DNA of 64,000 nt, from assembly GCF_000384135.1 (NCBI RefSeq), contig NZ_KB913028.1, forward strand, positions 554,351 through 618,350, in the 5' to 3' direction. Each line of letters opens with the position of its first letter. Position 1 is the stretch's first letter. Below the pieces are notes generated by a model that was not told the DNA's origin, made no database searches, and saw only the letters and a program-made list of their open reading frames with translations. Origin of the DNA: Succinispira mobilis DSM 6222 (GTDB lineage Bacteria; Bacillota; Negativicutes; Acidaminococcales; Succinispiraceae). The translations under genes were made by a program, and so were the position numbers. Shown here piece by piece: positions 16,936 through 22,614 of the stretch.

Positions 16936-17361
16936 ATGGAGTGTCAGGGTGGATTTTTAATTTCCCAAATAAAACAAATTAGTGGGAGGGTTCTGTCTAA
17001 GATATTAGCGGAACGCAACATAACCGAATTTAATGGTGCTCAAGGACGTATTTTATATATATTATGGCAGGGTGATAGTATCTCTATAAAAGAAATTGCA
17101 ACGAAAACAGGCCTGGCAAAGACAAGTCTTACTGGGATGTTGGATCATATGGAAAAAATTGGTCTTATTCAAAGAATTTATGTTAAGGAAGATCGGCGAA
17201 AAACGCTTATTAAACTTACAGAAAAGGCTCAATCTTTAAAACTTGAATTTGATGAAGTGTCTAGAGCAATGAGTACACTTATATATAAAGGTTTTAGCAG
17301 AGCTGAAATTTTATCTTTCGAAGAAAACTTAAAAAGAATTTTGGCAAATCTGGAAACATAG
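16936..17361 (+). CDS. MarR-family transcriptional regulator
   Basis: The 141-residue product is a winged-helix MarR regulator. The dimerisation helix is at the N terminus. The DNA-binding helix-turn-helix spans about residues 55-85 (SIKEIATKTGLAKTSLTGML), and the wing contains the conserved KEDRRKTLIKLTEKA. MarR proteins usually repress their own and adjacent genes and release on binding a small ligand. The dyad in its own promoter supports autoregulation. AAAGGTGGTGAG precedes the ATG. The next gene, for a small cysteine protein, may be a target but has about 140 bases of its own upstream sequence. Confidence 0.88.
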   Translation: MECQGGFLISQIKQISGRVLSKILAERNITEFNGAQGRILYILWQGDSISIKEIATKTGLAKTSLTGMLDHMEKIGLIQRIYVKEDRRKTLIKLTEKAQSLKLEFDEVSRAMSTLIYKGFSRAEILSFEENLKRILANLET

Positions 17362-17500
17362 ACAATAAACTTAATAATAAATAATTTTCATAAATGATTA
17401 ATTATAACTTAATGTAATCCAAAGTTAGGACAGTTAATTTTACTAGTTTATTTAACAAACTAGCAAGTATTGTAGATAAAAATAAGAGAGGTTGATAAAT

Positions 17501-17857
17501 ATGGAAAATCAAGATGGCAGAGAATTTATAGTAGAAAAAATAAAGGCGGTTATTTCGGCACCTAGTTGTTGTAAGGAATTAAAGATTATAGCGCAAGAAT
17601 ATTTAGATTCGGATAAAAGCTCTAAAAAACCACTAATAACAGAAAAATTTTTAGCTGAATTAGAAGCAGATGTGCAAACTATTGATGAAGTTTTAGCTTT
17701 CTTTAGTTCAGCGGCAGGGGAGAAATTTTTTGGCTTAGAAACTGCAAACCGGTTAAAAGCGCAGGCGCAAAAAGTTAAGCGTGAAGGTGGTAAATTTTGC
17801 TTTTGCCCAGCATGTGAAAATGGAAAAATAATTTTAGAACACAGAGAGCTACTTTAA
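17501..17857 (+). CDS. Small cysteine-motif protein (DUF, often labelled Hsp90-like)
   Basis: This 118-residue protein is mostly helical and ends with a CFCPAC motif, with a CC pair near residue 24. I recall proteins of this size and C-terminal CxCPxC pattern in anaerobic Firmicutes that carry an automatic label of molecular chaperone Hsp90; no ATPase or Hsp90 domain is visible here, so that label should not be trusted. The cysteines could bind a metal. The ATG at 17501 follows AGAGAGG; an in-frame TTG at 17492 overlaps that site. A short inverted repeat (17443-17463) lies upstream. Confidence 0.6.
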   Translation: MENQDGREFIVEKIKAVISAPSCCKELKIIAQEYLDSDKSSKKPLITEKFLAELEADVQTIDEVLAFFSSAAGEKFFGLETANRLKAQAQKVKREGGKFCFCPACENGKIILEHRELL

Positions 17858-17882: not shown

Positions 17883-17911
17883 TTGACAGCCAAGAAATAT
17901 TTAGGTAGAAT
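17883..17911 (+). promoter_or_regulatory. Promoter of the riboswitch transcript
   Basis: TTGACA at 17883-17888 and TAGAAT at 17906-17911 have a 17-base spacer. The predicted start near 17918 is about 30 bases before the riboswitch aptamer. Confidence 0.75.
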
Positions 17912-17946
17912 TTCTCTAGTATATTACGAAAAAAATATAGAAAAGT

Positions 17947-18035
17947 TTTCTAGGGTTCCGCAGTTGCTACTGGCAGGTCCGAGAGAAAACACGCAAGTTA
18001 TAGCGGACACGGAAGGATAAAAACCTGGGAGATAT
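17947..18035 (+). ncRNA. Guanidine-I (ykkC subtype 1) riboswitch
   Basis: The stretch carries the conserved blocks of the ykkC aptamer in order: TCTAGGGTTCCG at 17949-17960, GGTCCGAGAG at 17976-17985, ACACGG at 18007-18012, GGATAAAA at 18015-18022 and GGGAGA at the 3' end. These blocks fit subtype 1, which senses guanidine, better than the ppGpp, PRPP or nucleotide-diphosphate subtypes, though subtype was judged from memory of the consensus. The 3' end of the aptamer overlaps a terminator hairpin, so ligand binding should prevent termination and turn on the gene behind it. That gene is a radical SAM protein. Confidence 0.88.
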
Positions 18036-18059
18036 TATTAAAATATCTCTTGGGTTTTT
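18022..18059 (+). terminator. Riboswitch expression-platform terminator
   Basis: A 14-bp stem with three G-U pairs (about 18023-18036 with 18042-18055) is followed by a T run. Its left arm contains the aptamer's 3' GGGAGA element, so aptamer and terminator are mutually exclusive. Confidence 0.8.
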
Positions 18060-18148
18060 CTATATTATAAGCGGTTTAAAAGCAGTTCGTATTTATAAAA
18101 AAGTGATTAAAAGAAAGAATGTTTTAATTAACGAAGGCGGTGCGATTT

Positions 18149-18835
18149 ATGGGTGAGTTCAGTTTTAAAAATATTTATTTAGAGCATAATCGAAAAGTAT
18201 TAGAAGTTAATATTTTGCCAGAAAAACATTGTAATTTTGATTGTATTTTTTGTCCCCTAGGTAGAGCGAAAAATAGGGCAACTAATCAAAAAATTATTAG
18301 TCCGATTGAACAAGGATTGATGGAACTAGGAGCTAAAATCAAGGAAATACAGCCAGAATTAATATTTATAAATTCAAAAGGTGAGGCATTGTTGCATGAA
18401 CAAATTGCAGTTATCATCGAATTTATTAAAAACAAAAATTTACCAATTCGACTACTTTCTAACGGATATTTATTGGGAGAAAAAGAATATCAAGAAATTG
18501 CTAATAAATGTGATGAGATAATTGGTGAAATTAAAGTAGCTAGCGATGAAAATTTTCAAAAATTGCAACGCCCTATAACGGGATACACTTTTGCGGAGCA
18601 TATTGATAATATGACAAAATTTGCCAAACAATATACTGGTAAGTTTATTTTAGAAATTACATTGCTCAAAGGATATAACGATACCCCAGAATCGATACAA
18701 AAATTAAAATCTATAATAAAAACAATAGACCCACAAGAATTGCAGGTAGTGCGAATAACCGATACACGTTTTCAAAAAAAACTGGGAATAGTTGATGCTG
18801 AATTTGAGTCTTTGCAAAATTTATTGACTAAATAG
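18149..18835 (+). CDS. Radical SAM protein (COG0731-like) under riboswitch control
   Basis: The 228-residue product has the radical SAM cluster motif C28-x3-C32-x2-C35 in EKHCNFDCIFCPLGR. The order of later segments (SKGEALLH, LPIRLLSNGYLL, LEITLLKGYND) resembles COG0731, the bacterial relatives of the wyosine synthase Taw1. The family generates a 5'-deoxyadenosyl radical; the substrate here is unknown. It lies alone behind a ykkC-type riboswitch, so its product is predicted to be induced by guanidine. That link is unusual among the transport and degradation genes normally controlled. The ATG at 18149 follows AAGGCGGTG; GTG 18140 is an upstream alternative. Confidence 0.8.
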   Translation: MGEFSFKNIYLEHNRKVLEVNILPEKHCNFDCIFCPLGRAKNRATNQKIISPIEQGLMELGAKIKEIQPELIFINSKGEALLHEQIAVIIEFIKNKNLPIRLLSNGYLLGEKEYQEIANKCDEIIGEIKVASDENFQKLQRPITGYTFAEHIDNMTKFAKQYTGKFILEITLLKGYNDTPESIQKLKSIIKTIDPQELQVVRITDTRFQKKLGIVDAEFESLQNLLTK

Positions 18836-19030
18836 AATTTTTCTAGCAAAATCTTGGCAAATATGGCTGACGGTTTAAATCAAGCTGTGAAGAAATAGAT
18901 AAGAAAGAAAAAAGACGCGAAATTTGCGGTTTTTTTGTATTGCCTGCAACAAATAGTATTTTCATTTAATTTAGAAAAATATTTACCTTTTTTAATAATT
19001 ATGATATATTTATAATAATCCATGCAGAGC

Positions 19031-19117: not shown

Positions 19118-19201
19118 AAATGTGGGTTAGAGATTGATCGGGATTTCAACGTAAGTTTAAATCTAATAAATTTAGCAATGGGCTATAAGACAGATTTCTA
19201 A
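19118..19201 (+). pseudogene. TnpB (IS200/IS605 OrfB) 3'-end relic
   Basis: An open frame reads KCGLEIDRDFNVSLNLINLA and stops at TAA 19199-19201. The pattern CG-L-x-x-DRD-x-N-x-x-x-N is the last part of the zinc-ribbon and final catalytic Asp region of TnpB proteins. Everything upstream is gone, so this is a dead fragment. It is followed by about 120 bases of locally self-complementary sequence, which is where the right-end RNA of such elements lies. Confidence 0.55.
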
Positions 19202-19320
19202 TCGGGGATGGTACTACAGCCCTTAGAGCCGGGGTAAACTTGCTGCGGTAGTGGTATTGACCAGCAAACCACTAGCCTCCATAGGTTATGGTAGTTTACT
19301 AGTACAACTTGCGGATATAA
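19202..19320 (+). other. Structured non-coding sequence after the TnpB relic
   Basis: The sequence is richer in G and C than its surroundings and contains several small complementary pairs, for example AAACCACTA near 19274 with TATGGTAGTTT near 19290. Because it directly follows a TnpB 3' end, it may be a fossil right-end guide RNA (omega RNA). This is inferred from position and not from a recognised RNA family. Confidence 0.3.
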
Positions 19321-19332
19321 GGATATAAAAAT

Positions 19333-22300
19333 ATGAAGATTTTTAGACGGAAAATATTGCCGATTATCTGTAGTTGCTTATGTTTGGCTTGGTCAAACAG
19401 CGGTGGGGCAACAGCTCCAGAATTATTTAAAACTACAGAGTATTATAAAAGCACGGGTCTTGAGTATATAAAAGCCGCCGATGCCTATGCTCTTGGTTAT
19501 ACAGGCAAGGGGATTCGCTTGGCTTTGTTTGATCAAATAGTACGCTTTGATCACAGTGAATTCGTTAATAAAAGCGATTTACAAGGATATGTGAATTTTG
19601 CTAATGCCGGCTGGGAGATAAATCGGCATGGCACGCATGTTGCTGGGATTATGGCGGCTAGTAGAGATGGAGTGGGAATGCATGGGGTAGCCTTTGATGC
19701 GGGACTTCTGTCTTTAGGCACTAATCTGGAGCTGGATGAAAATGGAACCTATGATGTAGCTGCGTTATACCCTAAAACTTTTGCAGACAATTCATTAAAA
19801 ATTATAAATAACAGTTGGGGAGAAGATCTTGTCTACCCTGAATACTATCGAAATGCTCAAGAATATTTAACTTTTTTTAATATCTTTAGGCCTAGTGATA
19901 TCTCAACATTTAAAACCGCGATTTTAGATCATGACAAAGTGATAGTTTGGGCAGCAGGAAATAGTGGGCATTTGTCGGCGCAACACTATGCGAATCTCGG
20001 CATGGCAGTACCGCAATTATCAGGCAATATCGTAAATGTTGTGGCATTTGATCCTAGTAAAAAAACTACGGATGTCAATTTTTTAGCTGAATTTAGTGAT
20101 CATGCTTTATTTGTTGAAGAAAATAGCATCGCGTCTCCTGGGATCGATATTTATTCGGCAGTTCCCTATGGAGAGGGGCGGAGCTATGAAAAATGGTCGG
20201 GAACGTCGATGGCGACACCATATGTAAGCGGTACATTGGGCTTAGTGCAGCAGGCCTTTCCCTATATGACAGGGAAGCAATTAGTGGATACGGTGCTATC
20301 AACAGCTAATAATACTTTTGCTTTGCCCCGCTATACGGTGGGGGTACAGGTAGATTATTCTAAAATTGATAAGGAATATAGGGCTAGTAATTATCTAGTA
20401 TATTTTACTAACGAGGTTTTGACACCGCAACAACGGGAGCAAGATTTACGAGATTATTATGCGGCTTCCCCTTATATGCAAATACAATTTGGTAGTGTGG
20501 AAAATTTTCTAGATAAATACTCTCAGAACTTTGAGGGCTATGGTAATGAAAGATATTATGTAAATGTACCGCGGGAAATTATGTTTGGGCAGGGGCTATT
20601 AGATGCAGGCAAAGCAGTAAGGGGGCCAGGCTTATTTAATGCGCGACGGCTCACTGATGCAGATTATAGCAATACTTATAGTAAGGCTCAGGCGTTATAT
20701 AAAGTAGATACCCAGGGCTATAATAGTATATGGAGCAATGATATCGCTGAAAAACGAGTAGCTAAATACTCTAGTGCATATCTTGATTTTTACAAAGCAT
20801 TTTATGGTGGTCTTTATGCGCAGGGACGCTATGGGGCAGGTTTAAGTTATGCAGATGGTGAGGCCTATGGACAGACTTACTATGATTCTCTCAATACGGC
20901 GATTGAAAATAATATTTTATATAATTTACCAGTAGGGCTATTAAAAACAGGTAATGGAACTTTAGCTTTGACGGGAAATAATAGTTATCAAGGTGATAGC
21001 GTTGTTGTAGGCGGTACGTTACAGATAGATGGTAGCGTAAGCAGGAATGTTTATAGCGAAATAAATGGGATTGTTGCTGGTTCTGGAAGTATTGGCGGAA
21101 ACTTGATTAATCGGGGAACAACACAGGCAGGTAGCTGGGGCACAAGTGGCAATTTGTTAATCCAAGGGGACTTGCTTAGTAGCGGGATTATTGCAGTTAC
21201 GGTAGAAGATAGTGGTAGCAATAGTAAGATTTTGGTAAATGGTAAGGCCGAAGTTGCGGGCAGTAAAATTACAACTAGCGGCATTGTTATACCAAATGCA
21301 AGGTATCAATTTCTGAGCGCAACGCAGGGGATTACGGGGGATTTTGTGGCAACTTCAATTTCGCCATTTTTAAGCCTTAATCCTACTCATGACGCTAATA
21401 TCGCTAGCTTTCTGGTTAACAAAACAGCTTCTTTAACTTCAGTAAATAACCTGAACGGTAGTCAACAAATTAGTGCAGATGAGTTGGAAAAAATGTATAA
21501 TTCCCTCCCTAGTCAGCAACTACCTGTAGAATTAGTAGCAATTTATAATAGCAAGACTAAGCTATTGGCAGGGGCGGCATTACAAGAAACTTACGGTGGC
21601 GCGCAAGCCAGCATGACGAGACTTGCCCCGTTAAACTCTGTAATAGGGCAGTCGATTAATGCCAGAATGTCTTCGCTAGGCTCTCCAAGTTATGCTAGTG
21701 CCTACAATCAAAGCGAGAGGTTTTCTTTGTTACTGAATAACTTACAAAGTAATAGATACGTTAATACAGTAGTACCGCTAAATTTTGACTTAAATAATAG
21801 CTGGTGGGTGAAATTAAACGCTGGCTCTGGGAATATAGTTGCGGATAGTAGCAGAGGCTTAGCGGCTGTAGATGGAAAAAGCTCTGGCTTTGTCGTAGGC
21901 TACGATCAAAAAATTAACTCTAATTGGCGTTCGGGACTGATCTTGGGCTATGGTAAGGTGAAAATGTCTACGGCAAATGCGACGGGAAATAGTCGCGACT
22001 ATCGCTTCGGAATATATACGGGCTATAACCATCAAGCTGTAGATGTTAATGCCTATATCGCCGCAGGCAAACAAGCCAATGACACTTTAAGACAGTTGCC
22101 GAGTTTAGGATTAACCGCAAGTAGTGATTATGGCGGTCAAACACTTGAATTTGGCGTTCGGGCTAAATACAATTTGCATTATCAACAAAAAAAGAACTGG
22201 GAACTAGCTCCTTACGCAGAATTAAATGTGCAACGTAATAGTCAAGATGGGTTTACGGAAAAAGGTGCGGGCGTATTATCGCAACAGGCTGAGCGCTTGG

Positions 22301-22614
22301 TCAATGTGGCGACAACGGCAGAACTGGGGTTAGAAGCCAGTCGAAAAGTCCATGAAGGAAAATACACCTTGTGGGCAGGTTACAAACGCGCACTTAGTGG
22401 CAATAATCCAGAACTAAGGATGAGTTTTGCGGGAAATCCGAGTTCAAAGTTTGCAGTAAGCGGCAATGAACAAAGTTGTGAGCGCTTGGTACTAGGGGTT
22501 ATGGCTGAAGGTAATTTGGCTAAAAATTGGACAGTATATGGGGAGTTACAAGGCGAGTTTTCGGCAAAAGGCAAAAATAACAGCGCCAGCATTAGCCTTA
22601 GACATAGCTGGTAA
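19333..22614 (+). CDS. Autotransporter subtilisin-like serine protease
   Basis: The 1093-residue product has a signal peptide (to about residue 26) and an S8 peptidase domain with Asp67 (LALFDQ), His99 (RHGTHVAGIM) and Ser292 (WSGTSMATPYVSG). A passenger follows with an autotransporter beta-strand repeat near residues 535-560 (LLKTGNGTLALTGNNSY). A C-terminal beta-barrel of about 270 residues ends in the aromatic-terminated LRHSW expected for outer-membrane insertion by BAM. It should be secreted through the type V route and act on the cell surface. This gene is the best single evidence that the host has an outer membrane. The ribosome binding site before ATG 19333 is modest (AAGGATAT). Confidence 0.93.
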   Translation: MKIFRRKILPIICSCLCLAWSNSGGATAPELFKTTEYYKSTGLEYIKAADAYALGYTGKGIRLALFDQIVRFDHSEFVNKSDLQGYVNFANAGWEINRHGTHVAGIMAASRDGVGMHGVAFDAGLLSLGTNLELDENGTYDVAALYPKTFADNSLKIINNSWGEDLVYPEYYRNAQEYLTFFNIFRPSDISTFKTAILDHDKVIVWAAGNSGHLSAQHYANLGMAVPQLSGNIVNVVAFDPSKKTTDVNFLAEFSDHALFVEENSIASPGIDIYSAVPYGEGRSYEKWSGTSMATPYVSGTLGLVQQAFPYMTGKQLVDTVLSTANNTFALPRYTVGVQVDYSKIDKEYRASNYLVYFTNEVLTPQQREQDLRDYYAASPYMQIQFGSVENFLDKYSQNFEGYGNERYYVNVPREIMFGQGLLDAGKAVRGPGLFNARRLTDADYSNTYSKAQALYKVDTQGYNSIWSNDIAEKRVAKYSSAYLDFYKAFYGGLYAQGRYGAGLSYADGEAYGQTYYDSLNTAIENNILYNLPVGLLKTGNGTLALTGNNSYQGDSVVVGGTLQIDGSVSRNVYSEINGIVAGSGSIGGNLINRGTTQAGSWGTSGNLLIQGDLLSSGIIAVTVEDSGSNSKILVNGKAEVAGSKITTSGIVIPNARYQFLSATQGITGDFVATSISPFLSLNPTHDANIASFLVNKTASLTSVNNLNGSQQISADELEKMYNSLPSQQLPVELVAIYNSKTKLLAGAALQETYGGAQASMTRLAPLNSVIGQSINARMSSLGSPSYASAYNQSERFSLLLNNLQSNRYVNTVVPLNFDLNNSWWVKLNAGSGNIVADSSRGLAAVDGKSSGFVVGYDQKINSNWRSGLILGYGKVKMSTANATGNSRDYRFGIYTGYNHQAVDVNAYIAAGKQANDTLRQLPSLGLTASSDYGGQTLEFGVRAKYNLHYQQKKNWELAPYAELNVQRNSQDGFTEKGAGVLSQQAERLVNVATTAELGLEASRKVHEGKYTLWAGYKRALSGNNPELRMSFAGNPSSKFAVSGNEQSCERLVLGVMAEGNLAKNWTVYGELQGEFSAKGKNNSASISLRHSW

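What the first reader, a model, noticed from the sequence alone, without database searches (positions are those of the whole stretch)
17883..18835. Guanidine-I type riboswitch controls a radical SAM gene
A strong promoter, a well-conserved ykkC subtype-1 aptamer and a terminator that shares the aptamer's 3' block stand directly before a lone radical SAM gene. Known genes under guanidine-I riboswitches encode SMR exporters, guanidine carboxylase or hydrolase and ABC transporters. I know of no established radical SAM partner, so this could be a new route of guanidine modification or detoxification, or a different ligand.
Basis: partly seen in the sequence, partly recalled or inferred. Interest (0 to 1): 0.75.

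Follow-up and report, generated by a model that had tools for sequence, protein, structure and literature searches.

The report
Guanidine riboswitch driving radical SAM gene
An RNA switch that senses guanidine sits in front of an uncharacterised radical SAM enzyme gene, and the same pairing recurs across anaerobic bacteria beside genes for exporting guanidine and resisting the plant toxin canavanine, which points to an undescribed oxygen-independent step in that response.

Summary
Window 17939-18033 (+) is a guanidine-I aptamer (Rfam RF00442, 75.7 bits against a threshold of 63), with a near-perfect promoter at 17883-17911, an overlapping intrinsic terminator at 18019-18059, and a single radical SAM gene (18149-18835, 228 aa). 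It is the only guanidine-I riboswitch in this genome, and none was found in 62 other genomes of its order. The pairing is not a one-off. Of 80 homologous radical SAM loci from other genomes, 56 carry a guanidine-I aptamer upstream on the same strand, all with the overlapping terminator. The usual operon is riboswitch - [SugE/Gdx guanidine exporter] - [CtdA-type B3/4 protein, which deacylates canavanyl-tRNA-Arg] - radical SAM. In 13 of the 56 loci, and in the window, the riboswitch controls the radical SAM gene directly. Ten of 12 such genomes lack CtdA, as does the window's genome, so the enzyme probably acts on its own. A few loci add a PLP gamma-lyase. Best reading: an O2-independent enzyme of the guanidine/canavanine response, acting on a guanidino compound (most likely canavanine). 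The reaction is inferred, not shown. The riboswitch class is known; the radical SAM family is unnamed in the libraries and papers I could search.

The parts
17883..17911 (+). sigma-70 type promoter, TTGACA-17 nt-TAGAAT
   Evidence: 11 of 12 consensus matches, best site of the region
17939..18033 (+). guanidine-I (ykkC subtype 1) riboswitch aptamer
   Evidence: RF00442 75.7 bits, threshold 63; 74.2 bits with an independent model
18019..18059 (+). intrinsic terminator whose 5' arm overlaps the aptamer 3' block (expression platform, ON switch)
   Evidence: -18.3 kcal/mol, z -6.4; scan hit; the same overlap in all 58 riboswitches checked
18133..18140 (+). likely ribosome binding site GAAGGCGG, 8 nt before ATG
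   Evidence: direct reading of the sequence
18149..18835 (+). radical SAM gene, 228 aa, CX3CX2C cluster motif C28-C32-C35
   Evidence: PF04055 47.6 bits; invariant cysteines in 76 homologues; model pLDDT 92.4
18916..18935 (+). terminator-like hairpin after the gene
   Evidence: scan hit, stem 18916-18928 then T run

Best explanation
A guanidine-sensing, transcription-terminating ON riboswitch controls a radical SAM enzyme that belongs to the guanidine/canavanine stress response of anaerobic bacteria. Without guanidine the leader folds the terminator at 18019-18059 and the gene is off. With guanidine the aptamer keeps its 3' block, the terminator cannot form and the gene is read (mechanism inferred from the anatomy and from the known class). 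In related genomes the same enzyme is usually the last gene of an operon with a SugE/Gdx guanidine exporter and CtdA, which removes canavanine from tRNA-Arg. In this genome, and in several Clostridium species, it is the only gene under the switch. The best guess for its role is an oxygen-independent conversion of a guanidino compound that gives rise to guanidine, most likely canavanine, by radical chemistry on its carbon chain, so that free guanidine is the signal of exposure. The regulatory part I hold at about 0.95, the canavanine/guanidino-compound link at about 0.5, and cleavage of canavanine itself at about 0.2.
For: Aptamer, promoter, overlapping terminator and gene confirmed. Of 80 radical SAM loci chosen by protein alone, 56 have a guanidine-I aptamer upstream on the same strand; in all of these, the window and a plasmid copy (58 RNAs) the terminator overlaps the aptamer. 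CtdA-type B3/4 protein lies before the radical SAM gene in 42 of 80 loci, SMR in 22, EamA in 4; identities by Pfam and NCBIfam (SugE 130 bits against cutoff 126). CtdA under guanidine-I control is published for C. difficile, and the C. perfringens CtdA was tested (PMC11477304, PMC10018355). A methionine-gamma-lyase-like PLP protein lies directly before the radical SAM gene in two loci and within about 3 kb in three more; a PLP gamma-lyase is the known canavanine-cleaving enzyme (PMC10018355). Ten of 12 genomes with the riboswitch directly before radical SAM lack CtdA, and several have this as their only guanidine-I riboswitch, so the enzyme must be useful alone. Invariant E79, E127 and D178 sit at or just after strand C-terminal ends in the model, where substrate and SAM bind in this fold (inference).
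Against: No reaction is shown. No homologue of known function, and no NCBIfam equivalog near its cutoff. Some homologues (Acidaminococcus, Megasphaera) have neither riboswitch nor CtdA nearby, so the enzyme may have a role outside this response. Enterococcus faecalis, in which canavanine is reduced to guanidine and homoserine by an unidentified enzyme (PMC10018355), did not appear among the 80 best homologues. The PLP enzymes score below the methionine gamma-lyase cutoffs and may serve another substrate.
Confidence: 0.5

Rival explanations
1. The enzyme modifies tRNA-Arg (or another RNA), like its fold relative TYW1, so that canavanine is not used in translation; it works together with CtdA.
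For: Closest solved folds are TYW1 (Z 18.8 and 18.5, 3.0-3.3 A); 74 of 76 homologues match the TYW1 family weakly, best E 6e-12; CtdA, a tRNA-Arg editing protein, is its commonest neighbour.
Against: The Z is tied with pyruvate formate-lyase activase (18.0). Only four cysteines are invariant, so no second iron-sulphur cluster as in TYW1. Ten of 12 genomes with the direct arrangement, and the window's own, lack CtdA. At 228 aa there is little room for RNA-binding additions.
Confidence: 0.15
2. The enzyme is an anaerobic route for another guanidino compound, such as methylguanidine, replacing the O2-dependent dioxygenase that stands in guanidine riboswitch operons of aerobic halophiles.
For: A guanidine riboswitch-controlled dioxygenase/lyase pair demethylates methylguanidine in aerobes (PMC12508155); the organisms found here are mostly anaerobes; radical SAM chemistry needs no O2.
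Against: No formaldehyde- or guanidine-degrading gene is a conserved neighbour; CtdA and the PLP gamma-lyase fit canavanine better.
Confidence: 0.15
3. The protein is an activase for a glycyl radical enzyme that degrades a guanidino compound.
For: Fold match to pyruvate formate-lyase activase, Z 18.0, similar length (Foldseek top hit).
Against: No glycyl radical enzyme gene is a recurrent neighbour: clustering of neighbour ORFs shows no conserved downstream gene.
Confidence: 0.1
4. The window aptamer is a variant with another ligand (a ykkC subtype 2 RNA).
For: It departs from the near-invariant set at 17993, 18002, 18004 and 18023.
Against: 17993/18004 is a paired change (A-U to G-C) in P2. 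18023 is matched by a change in the terminator's 3' arm and also occurs in L058. No subtype 2 family matched. Pocket residues named in PMC11661666 (AG bulge, G63, G64, G81) are all present by alignment.
Confidence: 0.03

Closest known systems
Guanidine-I riboswitch (ykkC subtype 1, RF00442)
   Same: Aptamer sequence, structure, pocket residues and overlapping terminator
   Different: Controls a radical SAM gene instead of the commonly cited exporter, carboxylase or transporter genes
Guanidine-I controlled ctdA of Clostridioides difficile (CD2392)
   Same: Same riboswitch class; in C. difficile loci L100 and L101 the CtdA gene is followed about 20 nt later by this radical SAM gene
   Different: The window lacks CtdA; the 2024 C. 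difficile riboswitch review does not mention a radical SAM gene
TYW1 (4-demethylwyosine synthase)
   Same: Fold (Z 18.8) and, from memory of TYW1 sequences, an Arg-Pro motif
   Different: No second iron-sulphur cluster cysteines, shorter, below the family cutoff
Prokaryotic viperin
   Same: Best single NCBIfam score of the window protein (43.8 bits), shared fold (Z 16.6)
   Different: Far below the family cutoff of 180 bits
Canavanine response genes (CtdA, canavanine gamma-lyase, LcGNAT)
   Same: Shared guanidine riboswitch control or neighbourhood
   Different: Different protein fold; no activity on canavanine has been tested here

Membership tests
Guanidine-I riboswitch | Covariance model score above the family threshold | tested here: met
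   75.7 bits against 63
Guanidine-I riboswitch | Guanidine-contacting residues present (AG bulge, two Gs of CACGG, G in the 3' block) | tested here: met
   By alignment and spacing: 17981-17983, 18011, 18012, 18029; residues named in PMC11661666
Guanidine-I riboswitch | Binds guanidine and relieves termination | not testable with these tools
   Needs in-line probing or a transcription assay
Radical SAM superfamily | CX3CX2C motif and partial TIM barrel fold | tested here: met
   PF04055 47.6 bits; C28, C32, C35 invariant; fold matches Z up to 18.8
TYW1 | Family score above cutoff | tested here: not met
   25.8 bits against 317.95
TYW1 | Second set of cluster cysteines | tested here: not met
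   Only C28, C32, C35 and C121 invariant in 76 homologues; the second cluster of TYW1 is from general knowledge
Viperin | Family score above cutoff | tested here: not met
   43.8 bits against 180
Glycyl radical enzyme activase | Glycyl radical enzyme gene nearby | tested here: inconclusive
   No recurrent partner gene downstream; an unlinked partner cannot be excluded
Guanidine/canavanine response operon | Recurrent linkage with a guanidine riboswitch, Gdx or CtdA | tested here: met
   56 of 80 loci with riboswitch; 42 with CtdA, 22 with SMR; for the window itself only the riboswitch
Radical SAM mobile pair system | MarR regulator plus paired radical SAM genes | tested here: not met
   MarR 179 bits against cutoff 240; no TIGR04470 match in the genome

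The most novel reading that the evidence does not exclude
An undescribed radical SAM enzyme family carries out an oxygen-independent conversion of canavanine or another guanidino compound, induced by guanidine, and is the anaerobic counterpart of the known O2- or PLP-dependent routes. In some species it is the sole output of their guanidine-I riboswitch.
Probability: 0.4. Interest if true: 0.78.

Novelty: new variant of a known kind. Interest (0 to 1): 0.6.

Why it matters
Guanidine riboswitches showed that free guanidine is a real metabolite, but its sources and why cells respond to it are still being worked out. A radical SAM enzyme that recurs under these switches in anaerobes, often beside CtdA and Gdx, gives a concrete gene for the missing anaerobic step, perhaps including the canavanine-to-guanidine conversion whose enzyme in gut bacteria is unknown (PMC10018355). 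It occurs in clostridia, including C. difficile genomes, and on a Paraclostridium plasmid, so it can be tested directly.

Tried and rejected
Upstream MarR as part of a radical SAM mobile pair system: score below cutoff, partner absent, and not conserved beside other homologues. Phage origin: no phage record encodes a homologue. Riboswitch as an ancestral trait of the order: 0 of 62 other order genomes have RF00442, and the homologues in that order lack it. Solved relatives by sequence: nothing below E 0.002. Literature: no held paper pairs radical SAM with a guanidine riboswitch or with canavanine in a relevant way; the original guanidine-I paper (Nelson 2017) and several others are not held, so an earlier mention in their tables cannot be excluded.

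Full report
What is in the sequence. The whole window scanned against Rfam 15 gives one riboswitch, guanidine-I at 17939-18033 (+), 75.7 bits against a threshold of 63. A search of the stretch 17900-18120 down to E 10 gives no other ykkC-type family. A model made from 21 guanidine-I RNAs of other genomes, none chosen for its gene, scores the window 74.2 bits. The promoter TTGACA-17-TAGAAT (17883-17911) is the best in the region. The hairpin 18019-18059 followed by T residues folds at -18.3 kcal/mol, z -6.4, and its 5' arm is the last 14 bases of the aptamer. The gene starts at ATG 18149 and ends at 18835; another terminator-like hairpin follows at 18916-18928.

The aptamer is a normal guanidine-I RNA. 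Compared with 59 relatives it departs at a few conserved places. Two of these (17993 and 18004) form a new G-C pair in P2 in place of A-U. A third, G to A at 18023, is matched by a change in the far arm of the terminator, and L058 has the same change. The residues reported to touch guanidine in the Dickeya structure (AG bulge, G63, G64, G81; PMC11661666) map by alignment and spacing to 17981-17983, 18011, 18012 and 18029, all unchanged. The mapping is mine.

It is alone in its kin. The own genome (2.09 Mb, one contig) has this one copy. None of 62 other genomes of the order and none of 13 of the class sample has the family, while 220 of 398 genomes of the phylum sample do at E 0.001. Homologues of the enzyme in genomes of the same order (40-46% identical; Acidaminococcus by the named records) have no such RNA nearby. 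Other Negativicutes, Pelosinus and Propionispira, do carry the riboswitch-linked form.

The pairing recurs. A scan of 84,980 genomes with the radical SAM alignment returned 80 loci. Of these, 56 have a strong guanidine-I match upstream on the same strand, 149 to 1628 bases before the gene; one more has it on the other strand (L054) and one downstream (L089). By chance such a match within 1.7 kb would be expected in far fewer than one locus, given one to a few copies per genome (my estimate). All 56, the window and a Paraclostridium sordellii plasmid copy (L129) have the terminator overlapping the aptamer. Organisms span many Bacillota families and one Melainabacteria genome. The enzyme family itself is rare: 4 of 398 phylum-sample genomes.

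The operon. Arrangements among the 80 loci: riboswitch-CtdA-rSAM 19, riboswitch-rSAM 13, riboswitch-SMR-CtdA-rSAM 11, riboswitch-SMR-rSAM 9, riboswitch-EamA-CtdA-rSAM 4; without a riboswitch upstream 24, eight of them still with CtdA. The SMR protein is a SugE/Gdx by NCBIfam (130 bits, cutoff 126), the 235-aa protein a B3/4 domain protein (110 bits). B3/4 proteins under guanidine-I control are CtdA, canavanyl-tRNA-Arg deacylase; the C. perfringens one was assayed (PMC10018355) and C. difficile CD2392 is listed (PMC11477304). That the 235-aa proteins here are CtdA is by family and context, not by test. Neither paper mentions a radical SAM gene.

The enzyme without CtdA. Twelve genomes in which the riboswitch stands directly before the radical SAM gene were searched for CtdA: ten have none, one has a 71% match and one only a 28% match; the window genome also has none, its only B3/4 domain being in a long frame taken to be PheT. 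In at least nine of those twelve the RNA before the radical SAM gene is the only guanidine-I riboswitch found. So the enzyme can be the whole output of the switch, which weakens the idea that it only assists CtdA.

Other neighbours. In L054 and L089 a methionine-gamma-lyase-like PLP protein ends 50-100 bases before the radical SAM gene, and in L072, L082 and L087 one lies within about 3 kb. L054 carries both this pair and, on the other strand, riboswitch-SMR-CtdA-rSAM. The published canavanine gamma-lyase is a PLP enzyme (PMC10018355). MATE transporters lie near in seven loci. These are leads.

The protein family. Radical SAM by Pfam, no NCBIfam equivalog near its cutoff. Invariant residues include C28, C32, C35, one further cysteine C121, and E79, N105, E127, R141, D178. 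The predicted structure is good (pLDDT 92.4). Closest solved folds are TYW1 (Z 18.8), pyruvate formate-lyase activase (18.0), NifB and viperin; differences under 1 are ties, and a shared fold does not give the reaction. The tree puts the window protein on a long branch of unsure place, outside the well-supported Acidaminococcus/Megasphaera group; presence of the riboswitch is clustered on the tree, and the direct arrangement is scattered.

How it most likely works. Shown: RNA class, expression platform, gene and the recurrent operon. Inferred: guanidine turns the gene on, as for the class. Inferred with less weight: the enzyme acts on a guanidino compound. Guanidine itself has no C-H bond, so classical radical SAM hydrogen abstraction needs a larger substrate. 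Canavanine fits the neighbours, and conversion of canavanine to guanidine and homoserine is known from E. faecalis without a known enzyme (PMC10018355). Radical formation next to the oxygen of canavanine could break its N-O bond and release guanidine, but this is chemistry on paper. Against it, no E. faecalis homologue appeared among the loci returned. Alternatives are methylguanidine demethylation, tRNA-Arg modification and glycyl radical activation.

Verdict. A real, conserved and, as far as the searchable literature shows, undescribed partner of a well-known riboswitch. Nelson 2017 and other key papers were not held, so an earlier listing in a table is possible.

Noticed in passing
16936-17361 (+): MarR-type regulator resembling the regulator of the 'radical SAM mobile pair' system (TIGR04472, 179 bits, cutoff 240), but no TIGR04470 partner found in this genome.
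   Followed up: partly
17492-17857 (+): 121-aa ORF with a C-terminal CFCPAC motif and no family match, just upstream of the promoter; not found beside other homologues.
   Followed up: no
19333-22614 (+): 1093-aa subtilisin-like autotransporter with a long leader; the leader 19130-19330 folds only slightly better than shuffles (z -1.6) and matches no Rfam family.
   Followed up: partly
L054:17-4898: Clostridium muellerianum locus with two radical SAM copies: riboswitch-SMR-CtdA-rSAM on one strand and a PLP gamma-lyase-like gene followed by rSAM on the other.
   Followed up: partly
L129 (Paraclostridium sordellii plasmid pCS1-6): A mobilizable plasmid carries a guanidine-I riboswitch about 150 bases before a radical SAM gene of this family.
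   Followed up: partly
L042:1500-1606: ykkC-like RNA with an altered core, met among the guanidine-I hits; possibly a different subtype, left out of the model.
   Followed up: no
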